From: Brevibacillus brevis
Lineage (GTDB): Bacteria; Bacillota; Bacilli; Brevibacillales; Brevibacillaceae
NCBI RefSeq assembly: GCF_900637055.1
Contig: NZ_LR134338.1
Coordinates: forward strand, 3,544,001-3,608,000
DNA length: 64,000 nucleotides
Direction: 5' to 3'
Of this stretch, positions 478-31,143 are shown piece by piece. The notes beneath the pieces were generated by a model, which searched no databases, was not told the DNA's origin, and was given only the letters and a program-made list of their open reading frames with translations. Position 1 is the first letter of the stretch. Each line of letters begins with the position of its first letter. A program made the position numbers and the translations under genes.

Positions 478-1596
478 CTATCCTCTAGCGACCTTTCTCT
501 TCAAAAGTGGCTCGCGACCTTCGCGTCCTTGTGTTTTCGCAAGGTAGATGGCATATTCAAGCGGGCGAGTAATGGCATTCTTGTACTGCTCCATTGCCCC
601 CATCTCCCGGAAAATTTCCCGAGCTGGTTTGGGATTCACTTCGATCAGCCACGCACGACCCTCTACATCGATGCCAATATCCAGTCCAAATTCAACCATC
701 CGTCCAAAATGATCCTCGAGTGTTTCTGCTGTTTGAAAAGCGAGCTGTTCGCAATCACGTACGATCTGCGCAGTGCGCTCCTCCCCAAATCTCGGTCGGA
801 GAAATACCGAAACAGGGATAGCTTTTCCACCGCCATGCAGATTAGAGGTGGCACTGCGTTCTGGACCCACGCGAATCCCATGACCTGTAATACTCCATTC
901 ACCCTGCCCATTCTTTTGAATCAAGAGGCGCATGTCTACTGCACGCGAAGGAACCAGCTGCAAACGAAGCCCTTGCTGAACGATGTATTTCTCCTGTCTC
1001 GTCCAACGATCTACCCATCTCTGGGCAGCGGCTTTGTCTCTTACTACTGTGGACACTTTCGCCCTTTGCTTATTACGTCCGAGCAGTCTCAGTTCGTCGC
1101 CACGCTTTTCAATGGACAAGATGTTTCGACCCCCTGTTCCATTGAGTGGCTTTACGTAGAGCAATGGATGCTTGCCTAACATGTTTACGAGGCTTTGACG
1201 GTTATAGAGGTAGGTCTCCGGAAGCCAGCGATGCATTCTGGAGTCCCGATGCAGCACCTCATGTACTCGCCATTTGTTAGCCAATCGATTGTTTGCGTAC
1301 AAAAAATTACTCGTCCGCCGAAAGGCCACGTAGTTCTTAAACGCCTGTGTCGGTGTATAACGGTACCGGTCGAATACAGCGTCTGGACGATCAAATATCC
1401 TTGCTTGCCAGCCGCCACTCTTCCCCGGGACATACCCTCTCACCTGCTTGCCTGATCCCAACACGTCGTTAGGTGAAAACAAGAAAACGGTACAGCCCAG
1501 TTCTTGTCCAGCCTTGAGCAGTCGCCGAAAATAGGTTGGCTCTGCAAAACGTGTGCCTTCCCGCCAAGTCAAGATGCCGATTATGGGTCGTTTCAA
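478..1596 (-). CDS. YheC/YheD-type endospore coat-associated ATP-grasp protein
   Basis: This 372-residue protein resembles the YheC/YheD family, ATP-grasp proteins found on or linked to the Bacillus spore coat; their substrate is not known. The N-terminal 100 residues form a small alpha/beta domain (starting KRPIIGILTWREGTRF). The ATP-grasp fold follows, with the glycine-rich ATP loop KPLNGTGG at about 149-156 and a metal-ligand stretch EVNPKP near residue 320. The start is TTG preceded by AGAGAGGGTGG. It lies 59 bp downstream of the pseudouridine synthase gene on the same strand and could be co-transcribed. Family assignment is fairly sure; the biochemical reaction is not. Confidence 0.8.
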   Translation of the reverse strand: MKRPIIGILTWREGTRFAEPTYFRRLLKAGQELGCTVFLFSPNDVLGSGKQVRGYVPGKSGGWQARIFDRPDAVFDRYRYTPTQAFKNYVAFRRTSNFLYANNRLANKWRVHEVLHRDSRMHRWLPETYLYNRQSLVNMLGKHPLLYVKPLNGTGGRNILSIEKRGDELRLLGRNKQRAKVSTVVRDKAAAQRWVDRWTRQEKYIVQQGLRLQLVPSRAVDMRLLIQKNGQGEWSITGHGIRVGPERSATSNLHGGGKAIPVSVFLRPRFGEERTAQIVRDCEQLAFQTAETLEDHFGRMVEFGLDIGIDVEGRAWLIEVNPKPAREIFREMGAMEQYKNAITRPLEYAIYLAKTQGREGREPLLKRKVARG

Positions 1597-17265: not shown

Positions 17266-17305
17266 GAAAAAAAGCCGAGCTTTCCCGAAATGGAAAAGTC
17301 AGCTT
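17266..17305 (-). terminator. Terminator of the polysaccharide operon
   Basis: On the minus strand an imperfect stem (GAAGCTGACTTTTCC against GGGAAAGCTCGGCTT) is followed by seven Ts. It overlaps the stop codon of the UDP-glucose dehydrogenase-like gene. Confidence 0.8.
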
Positions 17306-18585
17306 CTCCCTACTCCGATATAGTGAAAGCCTGCTTCCTTCACCTCCTGGTTCGGCCAGGCATTTCGTCCGTCTACCAAGAGCGGCTGCGTCATGCTTTG
17401 ATGAACCTGTTTCCAATCCAGTTGGACACACTGTTCCCATTCTGTGACCAATAATGCGGCGTGTGCTCCCTCGCATGCTTCTGCCGCGGATTGCGTGTAT
17501 GTGACCTGCGGAAACTGCTTGCTGACACTAGGTACTCCAATCGGATCGAACGCCTTCACGGAAGCACCTCTTTGCAGGAGTGCTTCTATCAATTTGAGCG
17601 ATGGCGCTTCGCGGATGTCATCCGTATCCGGTTTAAACGTCAACCCCAAAACGGCAATTTCTTTGCCTTTTAGATCAGGGAGTTGCAAGCACAACTGCTC
17701 CAAAAACCAGGCAGGCTGCGTAGCATTCACCTCTCGCACTTTATCCAAAATGCTTAAGTGAATATTGTGCTCAGCTGCGAGCTGCAATAACGCAATCGTA
17801 TCCTTCGGAAAACAGGAGCCGCCATATCCTACTCCTGCCCGTAAAAATTGCGGACCGATTCGGCTGTCCAGTCCCATTCCCCGCGAGATCGTCACGATAT
17901 CCGTCCCGAGCGCGGTACTTAACCGTGCTAGCTCATTCATGAAGGAAATTCGGGTGGCCAAAAATGCATTCGAAGCGTATTTGATCAGCTCTGCGTTTGC
18001 TCTGGTGGTGATTACTCGCGGTGCCATCACGCCATTGTACAGCTCCTCCATGCGCGCCGCTGCCTGAGGATTATCTACGCCAATGACGATTCGCGAAGGC
18101 TCCAATGCGTCCAATAATGCACTCCCTTCCCGTAAAAACTCCGGGTTGGACGCAACAGATACTCCTTGGCAGCCAGCCAGCATCCCCGCGACTTTTTCGC
18201 CAGTTCCGACTGGTACGGTACTCTTGATTACCACGATGCGTTCTTGCGGTGCGAGCGAATGGACCTTTTCAATGTCTGAAACAGCCCCGAGTAAATACGT
18301 TAAATCGGCTGTGCCGTCTGCTGCTTCAGGTGTCCCTACACAAATATAAAAGATCTCTGCGTCCTTTGCCTCTGTCAGATCCGTATAAAAAGCAAGCGCG
18401 CCATCATCCAGTACTTTTTTCAATGCCTCATCTAAGCCCGGCTCGTAAATCGGCGAGATCCCTTGGCGCAATTTTTCTACTTTGGATGCAACGAGGTCAA
18501 TACCAGTTACCTGATGACCGTTCATGGCAAGGGAGACAGCAGTCGTCAAACCTACGTAACCGGTCCCAATAACGGCAACTTTCAT
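17299..18585 (-). CDS. UDP-glucose/nucleotide-sugar 6-dehydrogenase (YtcA/TuaD-like)
   Basis: 428 residues that oxidise a UDP-hexose to the uronic acid with two NAD+. The N-terminal Rossmann motif is GTGYVGLTTAV (7-17). The central active-site motif GGSCFPKD contains the catalytic cysteine (near residue 258). The C-terminal UDP-binding domain begins at GLTFKPDTDDIREAPS. It is the last gene of the seven-gene cluster, 12 bp after the GT4 gene, and would supply UDP-glucuronate (or similar) to its glycosyltransferases. By context it corresponds to B. subtilis YtcA; TuaD has the same chemistry. Confidence 0.92.
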   Translation of the reverse strand: MKVAVIGTGYVGLTTAVSLAMNGHQVTGIDLVASKVEKLRQGISPIYEPGLDEALKKVLDDGALAFYTDLTEAKDAEIFYICVGTPEAADGTADLTYLLGAVSDIEKVHSLAPQERIVVIKSTVPVGTGEKVAGMLAGCQGVSVASNPEFLREGSALLDALEPSRIVIGVDNPQAAARMEELYNGVMAPRVITTRANAELIKYASNAFLATRISFMNELARLSTALGTDIVTISRGMGLDSRIGPQFLRAGVGYGGSCFPKDTIALLQLAAEHNIHLSILDKVREVNATQPAWFLEQLCLQLPDLKGKEIAVLGLTFKPDTDDIREAPSLKLIEALLQRGASVKAFDPIGVPSVSKQFPQVTYTQSAAEACEGAHAALLVTEWEQCVQLDWKQVHQSMTQPLLVDGRNAWPNQEVKEAGFHYIGVGRS

Positions 18586-18597
18586 TCCTTCACCTCA

Positions 18598-19671
18598 TCA
18601 TTTTTTCGAGACACGCAAATAGAGCTCTTCTAGCCTCATCCGCTGCTTATGGATATCATGGTTTTTTTCTACTTTCAGTCGAGCCTCCGTCGTGATCTGT
18701 GCCCATTCATGACTTTCTGTTAGAACACGGTTGATCATTTTCCCGAGTGCAGTCGGCGATTTCTCCGGGACAAGATATCCGGTCCTTTTGTTTTCGACCA
18801 GCTCAGGAATCCCCGCGTGATAGGTGGAAATGACAGGGCGTCCGCTAGCCATCGCTTCCATAATGACATTGGGAATTCCCTCTTGATTGCCATTTCTCGC
18901 TGTCTTGCATGCGAGGATAAACAAATGGCACTTGGCCAGTTCACGCTGGACTTCACGATGTGGCAGTGCACCTTTGAGCACGACTTGTGTGCCTAACCTG
19001 TTTTTCTTGATCAGTCGTTTGAGCTTCTTTTTTTCTTCTCCATCGCCGACGATGATTAGCTTCGCCTTGGGATGTTTTTTATGCACCTGGGTAAACGCCT
19101 TGATTAACGTATCCATCCCCTTTTTTTCAGTCAGTCTCCCTACACTTAGCAATCGGTACTCCCCATTTTCCACAGGCTGTTGCGGCAGCATCGGAAATTT
19201 GCGCAAATCAATTCCTGAACGAATAAGGGTAATTTTAGACGGGGGACAGCCCAGACGAATCAATCGCTTTCTCATGTGATTGCTGACGACTGTAAACGCC
19301 TGGCCCTTTCGAAAGAGACGCGTAAGGGACCGTCTGTACACGGGATTTTCTTTTACGCGCTTGGTCGCATCAAAGCCGTGAAAGGAAGTGATCAGGGGAA
19401 GCTTGCTTTTTTGTGCATAAGGAAGCAATTCTAATCCAGCAGGACCAAAACGGGCATGCAGGCATTTAATTTTTTTTCGTCGCAGCCAAGTGGAGAGGCC
19501 GGCCATATGCTTGCGCACATAGACCGGCGAATAAGGAAATTGTTTTCGGTTAAAGGCTCGCTGTCGGGTCAACACCACGGGTTTGACCACTTGATGTCCA
19601 AGCAATTGCTCATAAATAAATGTTTCACTCTTGGGAAGAAACTTTCTGCGATAAACGAGGACCCGATGCAT
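18598..19671 (-). CDS. GT4-family glycosyltransferase (YtcC-like position)
   Basis: A 357-residue GT-B glycosyltransferase. The acceptor half includes LHARFGPAGLE and SFHGFDAT. The donor half carries VGRLTEKKGMDTLIKAF and the E-x7-E region EGIPNVIMEAMASGRPV. There is no membrane segment, but the protein is very basic, which suits association with the inner membrane surface. It lies between the epimerase and UDP-glucose dehydrogenase genes, as ytcC lies near ytcA and ytcB. The sugar and acceptor are unknown. Confidence 0.88.
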   Translation of the reverse strand: MHRVLVYRRKFLPKSETFIYEQLLGHQVVKPVVLTRQRAFNRKQFPYSPVYVRKHMAGLSTWLRRKKIKCLHARFGPAGLELLPYAQKSKLPLITSFHGFDATKRVKENPVYRRSLTRLFRKGQAFTVVSNHMRKRLIRLGCPPSKITLIRSGIDLRKFPMLPQQPVENGEYRLLSVGRLTEKKGMDTLIKAFTQVHKKHPKAKLIIVGDGEEKKKLKRLIKKNRLGTQVVLKGALPHREVQRELAKCHLFILACKTARNGNQEGIPNVIMEAMASGRPVISTYHAGIPELVENKRTGYLVPEKSPTALGKMINRVLTESHEWAQITTEARLKVEKNHDIHKQRMRLEELYLRVSKK

Positions 19672-19697
19672 GCAACTGGCCTCCTTTATGACGGGAG

Positions 19698-20648
19698 TTA
19701 CCCCTTCGATTGCGAACGAATCTCTGCTAATTGATGGCGAAGGCCCTCTTCTAGCGTTACTTTTGGTTTGTATCCCAAGCGTTGTTGGGCAAATTGGATA
19801 TCCGCACAGGTTCGCAAGGAATCACCTGCTGGCCCATTTTGATACGCAATGCGAGGGGTTAGATTCATTAACGTGCCCATGATGGATAGCACATCGATGA
19901 GCTTGATTTCCCGATCTCCACCCACATTAAAAATGTCACCAGGAACGGCATGCTGTGCAGCGAGCAGATTCGCCTCTACCGCGTCTGTTACATACGTAAA
20001 GTCTCGTGATTGCTGGCCATCTCCATAGATGATGACCTGCTCGCCTTTCATCATTTGACGAAAAAAGCGATGAAAAGCCATATCGGGACGCTGTCTGGGA
20101 CCGTATACCGTAAAGTAGCGAAGCATGGTCACCGGGAGTCCATAAGCTTTCACATATACCGAGCAGATTTGCTCCATCGCTTCCTTGGTCACTCCATAGG
20201 GGGAAACTGGGCGAAGAGGCGCATTTTCATTGGTTACGGTCCCTTGCATCGTCCCGTATACCGAAGAGGAGGACGAGACTACGATGACAGGCGGCTTCGG
20301 TCTTTGCAAGCAAGCCTCCAGCAATTCTTGTGTAGCCAAAATATTATGGCTAACATAATCGGCAAAGGACTTTCCCCAGCTGTTTCTCACTCCCGGCAAG
20401 GCAGCGAGGTGGAAAACAACATCGACGTTCTCGAGCCAAATGTCCCAACGCCCAGTCTGAAGCGTTGTAGAATGGAAGGTGAAGGCAGGATGTTTTCCTA
20501 TTTCGGCCAGATTACGTAGTTTCGCAGCAACATCGTAGTTATCGATGAACCCGTCTATCCCGATGACTGTCACGCCATCGTTCAACAAGCGCTGCGTCAA
20601 ATGAGACCCAATAAAACCTGCACAGCCGGTGACAAGAGCTTTCTTCAT
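19698..20648 (-). CDS. NAD-dependent NDP-sugar epimerase (UDP-glucose/glucuronate 4-epimerase-like)
   Basis: A 316-residue extended SDR. The NAD loop TGCAGFIGSHL is at 8-18, and the catalytic YxxxK reads YGVTK (about 153-157) after the serine stretch VSSSSSVYG. GDGQQSRDFTYVTD is the sugar-binding region. The first codons overlap the GT2 gene's stop by 4 bp. Together with the dehydrogenase gene it could turn UDP-glucose into UDP-galacturonate. It resembles YtcB of B. subtilis in type and context. Substrate specificity is inferred only from context. Confidence 0.9.
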   Translation of the reverse strand: MKKALVTGCAGFIGSHLTQRLLNDGVTVIGIDGFIDNYDVAAKLRNLAEIGKHPAFTFHSTTLQTGRWDIWLENVDVVFHLAALPGVRNSWGKSFADYVSHNILATQELLEACLQRPKPPVIVVSSSSSVYGTMQGTVTNENAPLRPVSPYGVTKEAMEQICSVYVKAYGLPVTMLRYFTVYGPRQRPDMAFHRFFRQMMKGEQVIIYGDGQQSRDFTYVTDAVEANLLAAQHAVPGDIFNVGGDREIKLIDVLSIMGTLMNLTPRIAYQNGPAGDSLRTCADIQFAQQRLGYKPKVTLEEGLRHQLAEIRSQSKG

Positions 20649-21448
20649 CGTCTCCGACGCCTCACTTTCTTCAGCCTTCTAATGACTAAATAACCGTTTT
20701 TGTAACCATAGATGGCCTTGTACTTCTTGCCCCACCTTTTCAGATAAAATTTGAATGTTTTTTTTCGCAAATAATTTCGGCGGAACTTCATCTTGCTATC
20801 CGTGAGCTGACCTTTATGCTTCGTTCGGTTGTAAAGGATTTTGTTGATGTATCTGACCCGATACTTTTCAATTAATCGCAAAATGATTCGCCGGTCCTCC
20901 ATAATCCTTCCCTCGTACCGATCCGAGGTATCCCAACCACCCACTTGATGCAGTGCATCTACGCGATAACAACGTGGAGAAACCATCCAGCGATTGTACT
21001 TCAGAAACTGGTACTTGTTATGAAATGTCTTGTGCGTCACCTTGAACGACTTGGTATACTTTCCGCGCCTAACTTTCCAGATGTTCATGTTGCCATAGAA
21101 GAGAGCTGTGCTTTTCTTGCTTTTGTGAATGTACTTTTTGAGCACCGCCAGCGTTCGTTTCGGTAACCAGTCATCGGAGTCGAGTTGTACAAGATAAGGG
21201 GTATCTACCATTGACAATGCCTGATTCATGACTTTGCCGATTCCAGAATTTTGTTCCATTCGATGATACATAATGTTTGGGTGGTACATATATTTTTCAA
21301 TTTTACTTCTGGTTCGATCGGTGGACGCATCGTCAATGATCAACAGCTTCCAATCTTTTGAGGTTTGATTCAAGACGCTTTTGATGGCTTTGCGAATAAA
21401 CTTGGCGCGATTGTAGGTCGGAATGACTACAGTAAAGGTCGGATTCAT
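20645..21448 (-). CDS. GT2-family glycosyltransferase
   Basis: 267 residues with the GT-A fold: N-terminal FTVVIPTYNRAKFIRKAIKS, DDASTDRT near residue 38, and the metal-binding QLDSDDW near residue 95. The C-terminal third is strongly basic, ending in KKVRRRRR, and should hold the enzyme at the membrane surface. There is no membrane helix. It overlaps the genes on both sides by 4 bp (ATGA), so translation across this part of the operon is coupled. Donor and acceptor are unknown. Confidence 0.88.
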   Translation of the reverse strand: MNPTFTVVIPTYNRAKFIRKAIKSVLNQTSKDWKLLIIDDASTDRTRSKIEKYMYHPNIMYHRMEQNSGIGKVMNQALSMVDTPYLVQLDSDDWLPKRTLAVLKKYIHKSKKSTALFYGNMNIWKVRRGKYTKSFKVTHKTFHNKYQFLKYNRWMVSPRCYRVDALHQVGGWDTSDRYEGRIMEDRRIILRLIEKYRVRYINKILYNRTKHKGQLTDSKMKFRRNYLRKKTFKFYLKRWGKKYKAIYGYKNGYLVIRRLKKVRRRRR

Positions 21449-22491
21449 ACGTCCTCCCTCTTAACAGCCGGAATGCAAATGGACGATTTGTCGCTTACAA
21501 TGAAAACGCCCGTACTGTTAGAAGATTGACCCGTCATCATCGATGAGCGGCCAAAAACGCTGTTTGTTATTTTCCATGCAATGTCATGCAACGAGCAGTT
21601 TTCCAGCAAGATACTATTTTCGAGATACGAGCAATTTTTCAAGCTTACGCCATTTTGGATCGAGACGTACGGTCCGATTTGGCAATTTTCAATCACACAA
21701 TCATCACCAATTAGTACGGGACCCGTAATCTTCGAATTTTTCACAATGGTTCCTTTGCCAATTTGATGTTGATTGCCTAGCTCCCTCGTAAGCATCCACT
21801 GGTTGGCCTCCAGCCAGCGATCGATGGTTCCCACATCCGAATACTTTCCGTTGGTGACGGAATGGGCCAATTTGAATCCGCGATTAATCATCGATTGAAT
21901 CGCATCCGTTATTTCTAGTTCGCCTCTGGGAGATGGCTGCAGGGTAGCAATCGACTCAAAAATAGGTGGCGTAAACAGGTATGCGCCAATCACTGCCAGG
22001 TTGCTCTTTGGCTGACGTGGCTTTTCCTCTACAGAGATTAATCGTCCTTTTTGTACTTCTGCAATCCCATAATCCTGTGGTCTCTCCACTTGACTCAGCA
22101 TCACGACACCGTCAGATTTCCCCTTCGTAAACGCTTTGGTAAGCCCGTGAAGTGAATCCATCAATAAATTATCACCTAGTAGCAAGATAAACGGTTCGTC
22201 TTGCAAAAACGGTTGCGCTAGCTGGACAGCATGGGCAATTCCCAGTCTTACCTCCTGCCTGATAAACGTAATGGTAGCCCCGAATTGACTACCATCGCCC
22301 ACCATGGGAGGAATCTGTGATTGTGAAGGATGTATCACGATGCCAATGTCCTGAATGCCCACTTCACGCAGTTTGCGAATGCAATAGTGTAAGACCGGGT
22401 GATTGGCCACAGGGAGGAGGGTTTTCGGTTGCGAATAGGAAAAGGGGTGCAATCGCGACCCACGTCCAGCACACAAGATTAACCCTTTCAC
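21445..22491 (-). CDS. Sugar-1-phosphate nucleotidyltransferase (RmlA-long/YtdA-like)
   Basis: 348 residues that make an NDP-sugar from a sugar-1-phosphate and an NTP. The N-terminal signature is LCAGRGSRLHPFSYSQPKTLLPV, and the catalytic Asp sits in LLGDNLL. The C-terminal third (from about residue 245) reads as left-handed beta-helix hexapeptides (IKNS.ITGPVLIGDDCVIENCQIG). The start is the GTG at 22491, with GGGGAGTG 6 bp upstream; an open extension to 22593 does not look coding. The activated sugar (UDP- or dTDP-linked) is uncertain, and the name glucose-1-phosphate thymidylyltransferase would also fit. Confidence 0.88.
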   Translation of the reverse strand: MKGLILCAGRGSRLHPFSYSQPKTLLPVANHPVLHYCIRKLREVGIQDIGIVIHPSQSQIPPMVGDGSQFGATITFIRQEVRLGIAHAVQLAQPFLQDEPFILLLGDNLLMDSLHGLTKAFTKGKSDGVVMLSQVERPQDYGIAEVQKGRLISVEEKPRQPKSNLAVIGAYLFTPPIFESIATLQPSPRGELEITDAIQSMINRGFKLAHSVTNGKYSDVGTIDRWLEANQWMLTRELGNQHQIGKGTIVKNSKITGPVLIGDDCVIENCQIGPYVSIQNGVSLKNCSYLENSILLENCSLHDIAWKITNSVFGRSSMMTGQSSNSTGVFIVSDKSSICIPAVKREDV

Positions 22492-22612
22492 AAGTATCAC
22501 TCCCCAGTTGTGCTCTGCGATACTTATAAGGTATGCGTATCTGGATAGCTGGACAGGGCAGACGTCCACATCGGCGAAAGAAAAGGCAACCACCTACATC
22601 ATTAACATCGAA

Positions 22613-23785
22613 TTAACCTGTTTTTAAAAGCTGTTGCTTCTCTTCTCTTCGCGTTGGAACTACGGTTTCAAATACGTTCAGATAGCCTTGCGCAGTTGCA
22701 TACCAAGAAAAAAACTTTGCTCGTTGCAGAGCCTGTTTGCCCATTTCATTCCGGACGGCAGGTGAACTCCACAACAGTTCCCAGACAGCAGGCAATCCTT
22801 TTTCCCAATCTTTTGGCGGGATGATAAAGCCACTTTTCTCGTGAGCAACGACTTCACGAATGCCGCCACGTGGAGTGGAAATGACGGGCTTTCCGGAAGC
22901 CATTGCCTCTAAATTGACACGGCAAAACGCTTCTTTCCAAACGGATGGTGTCGCTACGACATCCCCAATTTGGTAGTAAAGCGGCATTTTTGCGGATGGT
23001 ACGAAATTGACGAAACGCACCTTTTCACCCAAAGGCTTCGCAAGGCGCTTGAGCTCGCGAACATACGGATTCAGGCGATTGCTACCGTATCCCGTACCGC
23101 CCACAATGACGAGTCTGGCTTTCGGGTCTTGTTTGCTGACCTGGCGAAAGGCTTTGATCAGCACATGGACCCCTTTTCCGCGCATGAGTCTACCGGCATA
23201 AAACAAGATGCGATCATCTGGCTTCAATCCTAGTTCTTGACGCATTTTTTTAATCGCGATCTTTGCAACCTGATAAGGCGTGACATCGACTCCGAGGTGA
23301 ACCGCATGAATTTTATTTGCAGGAATCTTGCACGTCCGAATAAAATGTTGACGTAAAAATTCACTGTTGGTAATAAAACCCGCTGCCAGTCGAACGGCAC
23401 GCCGCATATTTTCCTTGCTGATAATCGGCTGTGAACCGTACACGTGAGAGTGCATATTCACAAAGACTGGGATCTTGGGAAAATGGCGTTTTAATGTGAG
23501 AACATAGATCGGTCTGTTTTCCACAAGAATGACATCTGGCTTGTTCTTCTTGATATGGTTAATAATCCGGCGCAAATATGGCTTTGGCCCTTGATACGGG
23601 ACGCGAATGAACTGCCGGTTTTCTTCCACGGATGAGGTTGGATAGGTCGCACATTGACGAGTGTAGATCGTCACGTTATGCATGGGCTCGATCATCTTTG
23701 TGACCTCGTCGATATCGTGTTCGACCGAGCTTCCTTTGACCGGTGGCACAGAAAAGGGACCCGGACTAATAATTGCGATGTTCAT
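22613..23785 (-). CDS. GT4-family glycosyltransferase (CotSA-like)
   Basis: A 390-residue GT-B glycosyltransferase. The N-terminal ISPGPFSVPPVKGSSVE is typical of CotSA/YtcC-type enzymes of spore formers. The donor half shows YAGRLMRGKGVHVLIKAF and the E-x7-E stretch EAFCRVNLEAMASGKPV. The gene starts inside the last 20 bp of the coiled-coil gene, so they are coupled. It is the second gene of the operon. The CotSA likeness is from memory of motifs; the transferred sugar is unknown. Confidence 0.86.
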   Translation of the reverse strand: MNIAIISPGPFSVPPVKGSSVEHDIDEVTKMIEPMHNVTIYTRQCATYPTSSVEENRQFIRVPYQGPKPYLRRIINHIKKNKPDVILVENRPIYVLTLKRHFPKIPVFVNMHSHVYGSQPIISKENMRRAVRLAAGFITNSEFLRQHFIRTCKIPANKIHAVHLGVDVTPYQVAKIAIKKMRQELGLKPDDRILFYAGRLMRGKGVHVLIKAFRQVSKQDPKARLVIVGGTGYGSNRLNPYVRELKRLAKPLGEKVRFVNFVPSAKMPLYYQIGDVVATPSVWKEAFCRVNLEAMASGKPVISTPRGGIREVVAHEKSGFIIPPKDWEKGLPAVWELLWSSPAVRNEMGKQALQRAKFFSWYATAQGYLNVFETVVPTRREEKQQLLKTG

Positions 23786-26607: not shown

Positions 26608-29454
26608 TTATTTATCGTTCTCGATATCGCTATCGTATTCTTCACTACTTTCATAATCTTGCTCGAGATCACTTTCATCCGTGTCTTCTTCATCCATGTC
26701 GTGATCCTCCGTGTCATCCTCGTCTGTGTACTCATCTTCCATGTCTTCGTCTTCCATGTCTTCATCATCCGTATCTTCGTCTTCCATGTCCTCATCTTCC
26801 ACGTCTTCATCATCCGTATCTTCGTCTTCCATGTCTTCATCATCCGTATCTTCGTCTTCCGCGTCTTCATCTTCCATGTCCTCATCTTCCGTATCTTCAT
26901 CATCCATGTCTTCCTCTTCAAAGTCGTGATCATCGTCACTTTGATCTTCTTCGACCTCTTCTCCCTCCAGATACCCCTTCTCTGTTGACCATTCCAAGAT
27001 TTCGTGTGGGACATCTACTCCTTTTACTCCAATTCCGATCCAGTGAATCACACCAGTCGCTTCCTGCCCTTCTTGATTGCGAAATACGGTGATGATCGCT
27101 GAAGTCCTTTTCGTGTATTTGAGCGATGTATATATCCCCGGTTGATTTGTCATTGCCACCATACAATAATGGGTATCCGCATAAGGCTGTGGCAATCGAA
27201 CGGTCACATCTGTAGACCTGCTTGTGGCAGAAAGTCTGAATGGGACGAAACCGTATTGTTGCAAGGTTACTCCTATGTGATTATGCGTCTCAATTACCGG
27301 AAAGGATAACTTCTCAGGACTAATTGACTCATTCGCAATGTGATGCGTAGTGACAGCTCTGGACGCAATTTTAGAACCGGTCACGGAGTCCTCTGCCAGT
27401 TTTTCCTGCGTAATGATCCGGTTTTGCAGATGCTGTTCTGTTATGCTCCTGCTAACAAGATGATTTCCTCTGAGCGTCCCTTCCTTAATGTGAGTTCCAT
27501 CCAAGCTGCCCTTTATGACATGAGCACCATGAACGGAATGGCTATCCAGCTTGCTCGCATCAATGCTCTGGTCGGCTATTTTATCTCGGGTGACACTGCC
27601 GTCCTGTATTTTTTCCTTGGAAATGGAGTTTCCCTGGAGATGGTCCGCATGAATGATGTGACTGTTGAGATGTGTAGACGATATGGCTTTTTCCGCAATT
27701 TTTTCCCCCGTGACGGATGATCTGCCCAGATGGCGTGTCTTGATCGCATCTTTGGCTATTTTGGGAGCTGTGATGATGGCATCTCCCAGTTTGCTAGTCG
27801 TAATGCTTAGGTCTGAAATTTTGTCTGTGGAAACAGATTCCGGCGCCAATTTTGAGGTGGTCACCAAGTGGTCATGAAGATGCTGCGTCTGGATGATGTA
27901 CTCGCGTAGATGATTGCCCCCAATGAGTCTGTCAGTCAAATGCTGTTCTTCAATCGATCTCCTTGCCAGCTTTTCTGAGCGAATGGACCCGTCAATCAGA
28001 TGTCGTGAACTCACGCTCTCATCGAGTAAGTGTTGCTCTCCTACACTCCTGTTCGCCAATTTGTCTGTAGTGACAGCCTTGTCAGCTATCTTGGCTGAGG
28101 TTATCTGCTGATCTCCAATTTTTTTAGCCGTCAGCATCCCGTCTTGCAAGTGGCTCGATAGGACACTGCCAGCTTGTAAATGTGTGCTGCCGATTGATTC
28201 TTTGGCGAGCTTTTCTGCCGTGACACTGTTGTTGTCCAAATGCTCAGTCAATATTGCATATGGCCCTACTTTATCACTGGTCACTGCTTCTGGATGTAAA
28301 TGCTGGCTATAAATAGCCTGAAAGGCAATGTGCTGATCCGTGATGCTGCCAACTCTAATGTTGCTGCCATCTATTAGCTCTTCCGTAAGATGATGATGGT
28401 AAATGGAGCCTTCACGAATATGCTGAGACTCAATTGAATCTTCGTCTATCTTCGTCGAAGTCACTGCTCCATCGCGTAATTTATCGCCTGTGACAGCTCC
28501 ATCCTCAATCTTCACGGTGTTGATCACATAATTGGCGAGATTACTTGTTTGAATGGTCCCCATCTTTATTTTTTCCGAAGTAATCGATTGATCCTGGATC
28601 AACTCATTCGTGATCGCTTGCTCCTGAATATGCTTGCTCTGGATCGAGTGGTCGGCAAATTTCATGGAGTCGATGGTTTTATCAGCTAACTTCTCGGACG
28701 TAATGCTATGGTTGATCAATTTTTGCGCGGAAATCGAATAATCCTGCAAATGCTCTCCGCTTACGATTCCCTGCCCCAGATGATCCCTCTGTACCGCATG
28801 CGGTGCGAGTTTGGTGGAAGTTACGCTCTTGTCCGCAAGTTTACTGCTGTCTACAGCATAATCCTTCAAAATCGAATTATCCACGGCGCCTTGCTTAATC
28901 TTGGACGCGTCAATGGCACGGTTCGCAATTTTTTCTGTTGTCACCGATTGATCTGTCAAGTCGTCTGTATAGACAAATGATTGGACACGATCATCATTTC
29001 GGTCTTTGATGACCTTCGAATAAAAGTTCTGATTGGCAGTTGAGCTTTGTTTGGAGGATACGTTTTGTTTGGATGATGAATCCTGTTTGGACGGTGAATC
29101 CTGTCTGGATGGTGAATCCTGCCTGGATAGTGAATCTTGCCTGGATAGTGAATCCTGTCTGGATGGTGAATCCTGTCTGGATGATGAATCCTGTCTGAAA
29201 GACGAGTTCTGTTTGGAGGATAGGTCCTGCTTGGGTACTTTGGGAATCGGTTTTTGTTGCTCTTTCGGTGTGGCAGCAGAGATGGGTGGTATTTTCTGAG
29301 TGCTCTCCAAATTACTTTCAAGCAGATTTAATTCGAGGTCTTCCATCCACTCCCGATCGGGTGATGATGTATAAGAGAGCGGTAACTCGTGCATGGTCTG
29401 CCTAAAGGTTTTGCTCAGGCTTTTGTTTGTTTTTCGCCGGTTCACATTGGCCAT
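26608..29454 (-). CDS. Giant decapeptide-repeat protein with acidic tail
   Basis: 948 residues with no signal peptide or membrane helix. Residues 75-137 form Arg/Lys-Gln-Asp-Ser hexapeptide repeats. Residues 170-719 hold about 55 consecutive decapeptides without a single insertion, consensus (A/S)(V/I)TSx(K/H)(L/I)xDx. A globular C-terminal block (about 720-830) contains LPQPYADTHYCMVAM and GVIHWIGIG, like the tail domain that ends tail-fibre-like proteins of Paenibacillaceae (WIAG-tail type, from memory). Residues 832-948 are almost entirely Asp/Glu. The repeats recall phage-fibre beta-structures, so a fibrous protein of spore or cell surface is plausible. ATG follows AAGGAG. It is monocistronic. 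Confidence 0.88.
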   Translation of the reverse strand: MANVNRRKTNKSLSKTFRQTMHELPLSYTSSPDREWMEDLELNLLESNLESTQKIPPISAATPKEQQKPIPKVPKQDLSSKQNSSFRQDSSSRQDSPSRQDSLSRQDSLSRQDSPSRQDSPSKQDSSSKQNVSSKQSSTANQNFYSKVIKDRNDDRVQSFVYTDDLTDQSVTTEKIANRAIDASKIKQGAVDNSILKDYAVDSSKLADKSVTSTKLAPHAVQRDHLGQGIVSGEHLQDYSISAQKLINHSITSEKLADKTIDSMKFADHSIQSKHIQEQAITNELIQDQSITSEKIKMGTIQTSNLANYVINTVKIEDGAVTGDKLRDGAVTSTKIDEDSIESQHIREGSIYHHHLTEELIDGSNIRVGSITDQHIAFQAIYSQHLHPEAVTSDKVGPYAILTEHLDNNSVTAEKLAKESIGSTHLQAGSVLSSHLQDGMLTAKKIGDQQITSAKIADKAVTTDKLANRSVGEQHLLDESVSSRHLIDGSIRSEKLARRSIEEQHLTDRLIGGNHLREYIIQTQHLHDHLVTTSKLAPESVSTDKISDLSITTSKLGDAIITAPKIAKDAIKTRHLGRSSVTGEKIAEKAISSTHLNSHIIHADHLQGNSISKEKIQDGSVTRDKIADQSIDASKLDSHSVHGAHVIKGSLDGTHIKEGTLRGNHLVSRSITEQHLQNRIITQEKLAEDSVTGSKIASRAVTTHHIANESISPEKLSFPVIETHNHIGVTLQQYGFVPFRLSATSRSTDVTVRLPQPYADTHYCMVAMTNQPGIYTSLKYTKRTSAIITVFRNQEGQEATGVIHWIGIGVKGVDVPHEILEWSTEKGYLEGEEVEEDQSDDDHDFEEEDMDDEDTEDEDMEDEDAEDEDTDDEDMEDEDTDDEDVEDEDMEDEDTDDEDMEDEDMEDEYTDEDDTEDHDMDEEDTDESDLEQDYESSEEYDSDIENDK
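26671..26910 (-). repeat. 15-bp coding tandem repeat (acidic pentapeptides)
   Basis: Sixteen Asp/Glu-rich pentapeptides (DMEDE, DTDDE and variants) give a 15-bp periodic DNA tract in the 3' part of the repeat-protein gene. Such tracts change length easily during replication. Confidence 0.9.
27298..28947 (-). repeat. 30-bp-period coding region, about 55 decapeptides
   Basis: The period is exactly 10 residues through the whole block. Position 2 is Val or Ile, position 6 is mostly Lys or His, and position 7 is Leu or Ile. DNA copies have diverged considerably, so the repetition is old at the protein level rather than a fresh expansion. Confidence 0.9.
29044..29232 (-). repeat. 18-bp coding tandem repeat (RQDSPS hexapeptides)
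   Basis: About ten hexapeptides (RQDSPS, RQDSLS, KQDSSS) near the N-terminus are encoded by nearly identical 18-bp units. This suggests recent expansion or slippage. Confidence 0.9.
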
Positions 29455-29577
29455 AGGGTCTCCTTGCCTCCTGATTTCATTCCCGTATCACTCTTGTAGG
29501 ATATTCATCCATTTCCGTATTTGGCACCGTGTCTACAAAATTGTTTCATCCTTATTGGCCTAAGTTTCCAGCAAACG

Positions 29578-29620
29578 CAAAAAACCTGCTTCGCCAACAC
29601 TCTCATTGGCTAACAGGTTC
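29578..29620 (-). terminator. Terminator of the FtsH-like gene
   Basis: On the minus strand AACCTG-TTAGCCAA pairs with TTGGCGAAG-CAGGTT, followed by a T-run. It lies 12 bp after the stop codon. Confidence 0.88.
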
Positions 29621-29631
29621 TTTCTCTTCAT

Positions 29632-31143
29632 TTATACAGCAACTTCTTCTTTCGTTTGTGACAAAAGCGTCCTGAATTCATCGCCTTGCAGAACTTCCGC
29701 TTCCATCAATGTGTACAAGCCCGTTTGGAATACGGAGTCATACTGTCTCAAAAGATTGCGAGTTTCTACGAGCAATCCTTCCAGCAGACGCTCAACCTCG
29801 TCATGAATACGTCTCTTATCCACATATTGCAAATGTACAATCCCCAGGTCGGACATACCGCTTTGAACAATTTCCTGTGCCATTCCCAGCGCTTGCTCGA
29901 AGTCATTCTTCGATCCAGTACTGCGCCCACCGTAGTAGATTTCCTCCGCTACGGCTCCCCCAAGGCTAACCATGATTTGCTTTTCCATCGCTTCCTTGGT
30001 ATACAGATAGCGGTCTTCCATTGGATTTTGTCGGACGTATCCGAGCGCTTTTCCACGTGGACTCAGCGTGACCTGCGAGACAGAGCCTGGACGCACGACC
30101 TCACTGACAATGGCATGGCCCAATTCATGGAGAGCCACACGCTTCTTCTCTTCCTCTGATGCTTGTCGGTCTACCTTTTCACCGAGCATGACCTTGTCCA
30201 CAGCATAGGCAAAATGCTTCGCAGTGATCTTTTCCTGGCGGTCACGCATGGCGTAAATGGCCGCCTCATTAGCTACACTTTCCAATTGGGCGCCAGAAAA
30301 ACCGAATGTCTCCTGTGCCACTTTTTCCAGTGTGACGTCCTCGCCTAGCGGTTTATTGGCCGTATGAATGGTCAAAATCTGCTCGCGTGCTGGCTTGTCT
30401 GGAAGATCAACGCTGATATGACGGTCAAAACGACCAGGACGCAACAGCGCTGCGTCGAGCATGTCTTTCCGGTTCGTAGCTGCCATGACTAAAATCCGCG
30501 GCTTGTCGGTCGTAGCTACACCATCCATCTCCGTCAACAGTTGATTCAAGGTTTGATCGTATTCACGCTGCTGTTGACCGTCCCTTTTCCCACCGACGAC
30601 ATCGATCTCATCGATAAAAATAATCGCGCTGTCTTGCCCATTTTTCTCTGCTAATGCCTTCGCTTCTTGAAACAATTCACGAACGCGTTGTGCACCGACA
30701 CCCACATACATCTCTACAAACTGCGAACCTGATGCCGCCACAAAGGCAGAATTTGTATAGTTCGCCGCTGCTTTCGCCATCAGTGTCTTACCCGTACCAG
30801 GAGGACCTGTCAAAAGAACACCTTTGATGGGGCGAATCCCGTACTGCTCAATTTTGTCCTTGTACACGAGAAAATCAAGCGATTCCTTCAGTTCTTTTTT
30901 GGCGCGTTCCTGTCCACCGATATCGGCAAACTGCACGTCCGATTTCGGCAGCTCATGCTTGTTTACTTTTCTTTTCCCACCGAGGGCGACATTCCCGCCT
31001 TGTCCATTTTGCTGGCGGATGACCAGAAAGTAAATCGCCCCCAGTACGGCTCCGAACACCAAGAATGGCGTAATGTTTACACCTAGAAAAACAAGAAAAA
31101 TCAACAGTGCAGGTACGACGCCGATCAGTACTTCCTTACGCAC
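29632..31143 (-). CDS. FtsH-like AAA+ membrane metalloprotease, short form
   Basis: 503 residues. Two adjacent N-terminal membrane helices (about 5-45) are joined with hardly any loop, so the extracytoplasmic domain of true FtsH is missing. Walker A GPPGTGKT is near 113-120, Walker B IIFIDEID near 175, and the arginine-finger region ATNRKDMLDAALLRPGRFDRH follows. The zinc motif is HELGH (HEAGH in classical FtsH), with an SKNDFEQA third-ligand region. It should degrade or remodel membrane proteins. Its start overlaps the upstream membrane-protein gene by 8 bp, which suggests a shared task. It is a paralogue, not the housekeeping FtsH. Confidence 0.88.
   Translation of the reverse strand: MRKEVLIGVVPALLIFLVFLGVNITPFLVFGAVLGAIYFLVIRQQNGQGGNVALGGKRKVNKHELPKSDVQFADIGGQERAKKELKESLDFLVYKDKIEQYGIRPIKGVLLTGPPGTGKTLMAKAAANYTNSAFVAASGSQFVEMYVGVGAQRVRELFQEAKALAEKNGQDSAIIFIDEIDVVGGKRDGQQQREYDQTLNQLLTEMDGVATTDKPRILVMAATNRKDMLDAALLRPGRFDRHISVDLPDKPAREQILTIHTANKPLGEDVTLEKVAQETFGFSGAQLESVANEAAIYAMRDRQEKITAKHFAYAVDKVMLGEKVDRQASEEEKKRVALHELGHAIVSEVVRPGSVSQVTLSPRGKALGYVRQNPMEDRYLYTKEAMEKQIMVSLGGAVAEEIYYGGRSTGSKNDFEQALGMAQEIVQSGMSDLGIVHLQYVDKRRIHDEVERLLEGLLVETRNLLRQYDSVFQTGLYTLMEAEVLQGDEFRTLLSQTKEEVAV

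What the first reader, a model, noticed from the sequence alone, without database searches (positions are those of the whole stretch)
26608..29454. 948-residue protein with about 55 gap-free decapeptides, a globular cap and a pure acidic tail
The 10-residue period holds across 550 residues with no insertion, which argues for a strict repeating structure such as a beta-solenoid or trimeric fibre. Position 6 alternates between Lys and His. The tail of about 115 residues is nearly all Asp/Glu, and no secretion signal is present. A cytosolic or spore-coat fibre that binds cations or basic proteins is possible. Proteins like this seem limited to Paenibacillaceae (inference).
Basis: partly seen in the sequence, partly recalled or inferred. 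Interest (0 to 1): 0.8.

Follow-up and report, generated by a model that had tools for sequence, protein, structure and literature searches.

The report
Spore-former fibre resembling phage tail fibres
A Brevibacillus chromosome carries a conserved single-copy gene for a long fibre built like a phage tail fibre (basic anchor, 55 ten-residue repeats, lectin-like tip) that occurs only in endospore-forming Bacilli and sits near spore-coat-type genes, so it is probably an undescribed spore-surface fibre.

Summary
Window 26608-29454, minus strand, encodes 948 residues: a basic N-terminus, a DxxWxxxLE motif, a hexapeptide linker, a shaft of 55 gap-free decapeptides (residues 171-720), a globular cap (about 727-812) and an acidic tail. 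The cap is NCBI's named but functionally undescribed WIAG-tail domain (E 1e-29). All 26 Brevibacillus genomes and 38 of 39 in the order carry it, at one fixed locus wherever the fetched contig shows the flanks. Of 349 sampled Bacilli genomes 91 carry it (35 of 134 genera), and all 91 have SpoIVA. It is therefore not limited to Paenibacillaceae. Outside this order it often sits beside YheC/D ATP-grasp, glycosyltransferase or SpoVR genes. An upstream element of sigma-E/sigma-K -10 shape is conserved in 47 of 58 genes. The shaft repeat is shared with phage tail fibres; the predicted cap resembles tailspike/pyocin-fibre C-terminal domains and H-type lectins. The 55 repeats are orthologous one to one between species, while linker and tail lengths drift. 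The acidic tail is specific to one clade. Best reading: a tail-fibre-like, probably trimeric, spore-surface fibre with a glycan-binding or trimerising cap. No expression, localisation or oligomer evidence exists; those steps are inferred.

The parts
26608..29454 (-). CDS, 948 aa, WIAG-tail fibre protein
29497..29526 (-). Conserved upstream element TGCC-N16-GAATATCCTA, its last base 42 bp before the ATG; resembles a sigma-K/sigma-E type promoter (inference)
   Evidence: the -10-like box G[AC]ATANNNT[AG] is found 25-55 bp before the start in 47 of 58 WIAG genes, shuffles mean 0.7, max 5; the match to the B. subtilis sigma-K consensus is not significant per sequence
29577..29619 (-). Terminator-like hairpin plus T-run after the upstream FtsH-like gene, so the fibre gene is probably its own transcription unit
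   Evidence: read directly; not listed by the simple scan
29395..29454 (-). Residues 1-20: basic N-terminus (net +6), MANVNRRK-type, proposed anchor
   Evidence: K/R-rich N-terminus kept across Bacilli families
29314..29358 (-). Residues 33-47: DREWMEDLELNLLES, the DxxWxxxLE motif
   Evidence: W-[LM]-x-x-[LI]-E type motif recurs in most homologues
29066..29205 (-). Hexapeptide linker (SRQDSx repeats), 18-bp tandem array
   Evidence: distance to the shaft varies in steps of 6 residues between close species
28945..28977 (-). Residues 160-170: near-invariant shaft entry FVYTDDLTDQS
   Evidence: YTDDLTDxxVTxEKIAxRxID-type entry in nearly all homologues
27295..28944 (-). Residues 171-720: shaft of 55 gap-free decapeptides
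   Evidence: repeat shared with phage tail fibres
27019..27276 (-). Residues 727-812: WIAG-tail cap, predicted beta-sandwich of the tailspike C-terminal / H-type-lectin type
   Evidence: NF012201 E 1.2e-29; fold comparison
26611..27009 (-). Residues 816-948: acidic tail, clade-specific
   Evidence: net -85; about 70% D/E only in the brevis-like clade; tandem repeats in DNA

Best explanation
This is a chromosomal, sporulation-linked structural fibre built on the plan of a phage tail fibre. Shown: conserved single-copy gene, fixed locus in the order, confinement to spore-forming genomes, the domain order, shaft homology to phage fibres, fixed shaft length within the clade. Inferred: the protein is made in the mother cell late in sporulation (no export signal needed), three chains wind together through the decapeptide shaft and are held in register by the C-terminal WIAG cap, the basic N-terminus plus DxxWxxxLE motif ties the fibre to the coat or exosporium, and the cap faces outward and binds a glycan, either coat polysaccharide or an external sugar. 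The acidic tail is an optional, fast-changing addition in the brevis-like clade.
For: Cap = NF012201 over its cut-off. 26/26 Brevibacillus and 38/39 genomes of the order. Same place between FtsH-like and AsnS genes wherever both flanks are in hand in the order, a few loci lacking one hit. In 349 Bacilli, all 91 WIAG+ genomes have SpoIVA, against 238 of 349 overall (genus-level chance 0.0013); outside Bacilli none in the phylum sample. Neighbours outside the order: YheC/D ATP-grasp genes in 12 of 23 loci, often within 300 bp (chance per 16-kb stretch about 0.026), NTP transferase plus GT2 genes, SpoVR; yheC/yheD are sigma-E genes raised by SpoIIID in B. subtilis (PMC517825). Conserved upstream box in 47 of 58 genes. 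Shaft matches phage tail-fibre families and phage tail-fibre models. Cap fold: LKA1 tailspike Z 10.0, R1 pyocin fibre 8.9, AP22 gp54 8.7, Sf6 tailspike 8.1-8.2, Helix agglutinins 7.6-7.9; Gp53-like_C weakly matched by 6 of 16 caps, best E 9.6e-5. The 55 repeats align one to one at 61-68% identity between Brevibacillus clades and 50% with another genus, against 25% out of register, while linker and tail vary.
Against: No expression, localisation or proteomic data. The published B. laterosporus coat/parasporal-body study named four other proteins from its two major bands (PMC5335551). The cap model has only moderate confidence (pLDDT about 57-77; no Foldseek hit at E 0.001 or better). Shaft models are monomeric; confidence was 20-29 with five sequences and 82.8 only with phage and internal-repeat segments added, and the five models of that run ranged 49-83. 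In this order the gene sits among housekeeping genes, with the glycosyltransferase cluster 3-4 kb downstream. The strict promoter pattern is unique in this genome, so co-regulation is not shown. Three genomes keep anchor and cap but have lost the shaft, so the shaft is dispensable there.
Confidence: 0.6

Rival explanations
1. Intracellular scaffold: the protein stays in the mother cell or between coat layers as a structural rod or polyelectrolyte and never reaches the surface; cap and tail bind coat proteins or cations, not glycans.
For: No signal peptide; strongly basic N-terminus and, in this clade, strongly acidic tail suggest electrostatic self-assembly.
Against: Tail-fibre/lectin type cap and glycosyltransferase neighbours fit an outward-facing or glycan-linked role better; the acidic tail is clade-specific.
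Confidence: 0.2
2. Monomeric pentapeptide-like beta-helix rod: each decapeptide is two pentapeptides coiling into a solenoid.
For: Hydrophobic residues every five positions; profile hits to designed pentapeptide-repeat proteins at E 4e-7 to 1e-6 and a weak HetL hit.
Against: No Pfam pentapeptide match; the shaft model has one short helical turn per repeat and no strands; no solved structure matched by fold.
Confidence: 0.12
3. Prophage remnant or captured phage tail-fibre gene without a cell function.
For: The shaft repeat is typical of phage tail fibres.
Against: Single copy in all Brevibacillus, conserved synteny, no phage genes among the flanking genes examined; cap not found in 80 viral loci nor in eight annotated phage loci.
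Confidence: 0.03
4. Vegetative cell-surface or secreted adhesin unrelated to spores.
For: Fibre with lectin-like tip.
Against: No signal peptide or wall anchor in the sequence; presence only in SpoIVA+ genomes.
Confidence: 0.05

Closest known systems
WIAG-tail domain proteins (NCBIfam NF012201)
   Same: Cap domain over the curated cut-off; decapeptide shaft and C-terminal WIAG cap in most homologues found here
   Different: The family name gives no function; this member adds a 130-residue acidic tail and a hexapeptide linker
Phage tail fibres with VTTxKIADGA repeats (PHROG 892, 28766, 21412; cyanophage fibres)
   Same: Same gap-free decapeptide and same predicted shaft conformation
   Different: Chromosomal conserved locus; WIAG cap absent from the phage loci examined; His at position 5 in 42-59% of Lys+His positions, against 1-8% in phage shafts
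Tailspike / R-pyocin fibre C-terminal domains, Gp53-like_C (PF21882), and H-type lectins (Helix pomatia agglutinin)
   Same: Cap fold similarity, Z 7-10; weak Pfam match
   Different: Sequence identity 9-20%; Pfam score below cut-off; sugar-binding residues not tested
BclA collagen-like exosporium filaments
   Same: Analogy: N-terminal anchor, long shaft, globular C-terminal domain, trimer (PMC10470788 abstract, describes BclA trimers)
   Different: Decapeptide instead of collagen shaft; no collagen or BclA Pfam match
F-ENA endospore appendages (DUF4183)
   Same: Trimeric spore fibres; DUF4183 genes reported in Brevibacillus and Paenibacillus (PMC11952670)
   Different: No DUF4183 in this protein; the genome has two separate DUF4183 genes elsewhere

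Membership tests
WIAG-tail domain (NF012201) | HMM score over the curated cut-off (33 bits) | tested here: met
   102.2 bits, residues 731-809
WIAG-tail domain (NF012201) | Cap after long ten-residue repeats near the C-terminus | tested here: met
   55 repeats then cap
Phage tail fibre | Homologous shaft repeat | tested here: met
   PHROG 892 E 1.1e-90
Phage tail fibre | Gene lies in a phage structural module | tested here: not met
   Conserved housekeeping synteny
Gp53-like_C (PF21882) | Pfam gathering score 24.9 | tested here: inconclusive
   23.3 bits for the cap alone, 16.1 for the whole protein
H-type lectin | H-type lectin fold | tested here: inconclusive
   Z 7.6-7.9 to Helix agglutinins on a moderate-confidence model
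H-type lectin | Sugar binding | not testable with these tools
   needs a glycan array
Trimeric fibre | Three chains per fibre | not testable with these tools
   only monomer prediction offered
BclA-type collagen-like exosporium protein | Collagen (Gly-X-Y) repeat | tested here: not met
   no collagen match; Gly is not periodic at three
F-ENA (DUF4183) | DUF4183 domain | tested here: not met
Pentapeptide repeat protein | Pfam pentapeptide match | tested here: not met
   no match; weak similarity to designed pentapeptide proteins
Spore coat / exosporium protein | Found only in spore-forming genomes | tested here: met
   91 of 91 WIAG+ genomes have SpoIVA; not corrected for phylogeny
Spore coat / exosporium protein | Present on purified spores | not tested
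   no proteomic data found

The most novel reading that the evidence does not exclude
A widespread but undescribed class of endospore-surface fibres in Bacilli reuses the phage tail-fibre plan (anchor, fixed-length decapeptide shaft, lectin-like trimer cap), with histidines along the shaft as a cell-specific change that might bind metal or sense pH.
Probability: 0.45. Interest if true: 0.75.

Novelty: new variant of a known kind. Interest (0 to 1): 0.6.

Why it matters
Single-copy WIAG-tail genes occur in about a quarter of sampled Bacilli genomes, yet the full-text library held one paper using the name, for a haptophyte-virus protein. If the spore reading holds, the surface of many Brevibacillus and related spores carries phage-tail-like fibres with a lectin-like tip, a counterpart of BclA and ENA filaments. 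That would bear on spore adhesion, on how a fixed shaft length is kept, and on exchange between phage fibres and cell structures. It is directly testable.

Tried and rejected
Viral-contig scans with the full protein and with a cap query found no relatives; the 16-cap alignment was too divergent for the scan. Profile search of the cap against PDB sequences: nothing. Foldseek of the shaft against PDB: nothing. AlphaFold2 of 12 repeats plus cap with five sequences left the shaft unfolded. An alignment with overlapping self-segments was mis-registered and discarded. The B. subtilis sigma-K consensus was no better than shuffles in most single upstream regions, so only the cross-species conservation is used. 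The strict promoter pattern occurs once in the genome, so no regulon could be drawn. CpbA of B. laterosporus was considered and dropped: about 28 kDa without the GST tag, and its paper mentions no tail or long-repeat features. The His/Lys contrast was first seen in phage loci chosen with Lys-bearing patterns, a biased set; a less biased set still gave 8% against 42-59%.

Full report
OBSERVATION. The ORF at 26608-29454 is on the minus strand and encodes 948 residues. The register is gap-free: 55 decapeptides from residue 171 to 720, all with V/I/L at position 1 and L/I/V/F at position 6; position 5 is Lys 28 times and His 23 times, in no strict alternation. Shifting the shaft by whole repeats leaves about 25% identity, and the 30-bp units share only 39% DNA identity on average, so this is an old repeat held at protein level. 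In contrast, the linker before the shaft is an 18-bp tandem array and the acidic tail is coded by 30/45-bp tandem repeats.

WHAT IT IS. The cap (residues 731-809) is the WIAG-tail domain of NCBIfam, 102 bits against a cut-off of 33. Pfam has only a sub-threshold match to Gp53-like_C, a tail-fibre C-terminal domain; six of sixteen diverse caps match it weakly, best E 9.6e-5. The shaft matches phage tail-fibre families at up to 1e-90 and 80 phage records.

DISTRIBUTION. 26 of 26 Brevibacillus genomes and 38 of 39 in the family/order carry it, one copy each except one genome with two in tandem. In an even sample of 349 Bacilli, 91 carry it; all 91 have SpoIVA, which 238 of 349 genomes have. The hypergeometric value of 1.5e-19 ignores kinship; at genus level it is 0.0013. 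In a phylum sample of 398 genomes only Bacilli matched.

GENE CONTEXT. In this order the gene lies between an FtsH-like AAA/M41 gene and asnS, with TseB-like and amidohydrolase genes on one side and dnaD, a GT4 and an RmlA-type gene on the other; the order of genes holds wherever the fetched contig shows them, though some loci lack one or another hit. Downstream in the window, 17299-23785, is a cluster of UDP-glucose dehydrogenase, GT4, epimerase, GT2, RmlA-type and GT4 genes. In other families the neighbours differ but point the same way: YheC/D-type ATP-grasp genes in 12 of 23 loci (several within 300 bp), an NTP transferase with GT2 glycosyltransferases, and SpoVR. The YheC/D share exceeds a simple expectation of about 0.026 per 16-kb stretch taken from this genome's 11 copies, although six of the twelve loci belong to one family. 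B. [quoted passage not shown]

UPSTREAM ELEMENT. A box G[AC]ATANNNT[AG] lies 25-55 bp before the start in 47 of 58 genes (shuffles: mean 0.7, maximum 5), usually with a GCC or ACC about 16 bp before it. It has the shape of a sigma-E/sigma-K -10 region; the consensus is from my own knowledge, and its spacing from PMC517825. Taken singly, most sequences do not beat shuffles for a full sigma-K site, and the sequences are related, so this is suggestive only. A terminator-like hairpin follows the upstream gene (read by eye).

ANATOMY ACROSS THE FAMILY. Most homologues have a K/R-rich N-terminus without a signal peptide, a W-[LM]-x-x-[LI]-E type motif, a variable linker, a near-invariant shaft entry (YTDDLTDxxVTxEKIAxRxID), the shaft, and the cap. 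Uninterrupted shaft length runs from about 46 to 189 repeats between clades, but most Brevibacillus species, and one other genus at 50% identity, have exactly 55 repeats that correspond one to one. Within the brevis-like clade the distance to the shaft drifts in six-residue steps and the tail from 120 to 158 residues, while the shaft stays at 55. The tail is about 70% Asp/Glu only in that clade, lower in other Brevibacillus, and absent in several other families where the protein ends at the cap. Three genomes keep N-terminus and cap but have lost the shaft.

STRUCTURE. AlphaFold2 with five sequences gives a six-stranded cap (pLDDT about 57-77) and an unfolded shaft. The cap's best fold matches are C-terminal domains of phage tailspikes and R-pyocin fibres and the H-type lectins of Helix: Z 10.0, 8.9, 8.7, 8.1-8.2 and 7.6-7.9. 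Foldseek gave no hit at E 0.001 or better, and a Z below 8 can be a common arrangement, so this rests on the coherence of the top rows. A 12-repeat shaft with 22 further shaft segments (window, B. reuszeri, phages) gives pLDDT 82.8 in the best of five models, one short helical turn per repeat, and no strands. It has no PDB match and matches phage tail-fibre models. Absence of intrachain sheet argues against a classical solenoid and leaves an intertwined trimer as the likeliest form; that is inference. Sequence profiles also touch a cyanophage fibre with a solved entry (8i4m, E 2.7e-6) and designed pentapeptide proteins.

A CELL-SPECIFIC FEATURE. Shaft position 5 is His in 42-59% of Lys+His positions in Bacilli, 1.4% in IMG/VR phage shafts selected with Lys-bearing patterns, and 8% in a less biased set of annotated phages. 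A metal or pH role is speculation.

MECHANISM. Best reading: a mother-cell-made, surface-assembled trimeric fibre with N-terminal anchoring and an outward cap that trimerises and may bind glycans. Shown: gene, domains, distribution, synteny, fixed shaft length. Inferred: timing, localisation, trimer, glycan binding.

NOVELTY. The domain has a name, and the shaft is a known phage element. A search of 5.39 million open papers for 'WIAG-tail' returned one, an algal-virus annotation; most subscription papers are not held. I rate it a new variant of a known kind.

Noticed in passing
L081, L082, L083 (genomes G028-G030): WIAG proteins of 349-384 aa that keep the basic N-terminus and cap but have no decapeptide shaft: natural shaft-less versions.
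   Followed up: partly
L073 (G031:C9:160000-178000): Two WIAG genes in tandem (1194 and 740 aa) next to asnS.
   Followed up: no
window 17299-23785: Cluster of UDP-glucose dehydrogenase, GT4, epimerase, GT2, RmlA-type and GT4 genes downstream of asnS; looks like a polysaccharide operon.
   Followed up: partly
G000:C1:1101611-1102320: Two DUF4183 (F-ENA type) genes in the same genome, so this species may also make F-ENA spore appendages.
   Followed up: no
window 478-1596: A YheC/D-type ATP-grasp gene lies 25 kb from the fibre gene; the genome has 11 such matches.
   Followed up: partly
window 29632-31143: FtsH-like AAA/M41 protein of 503 aa, below the FtsH cut-off, next to the fibre gene throughout this order; possibly sporulation-related.
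   Followed up: no
G026 (same family): The only genome of 39 in the order without a WIAG-tail match, although SpoIVA is present.
   Followed up: no
L055 and L063: The small gene next to the FtsH-like gene (orf224) appears twice.
   Followed up: no
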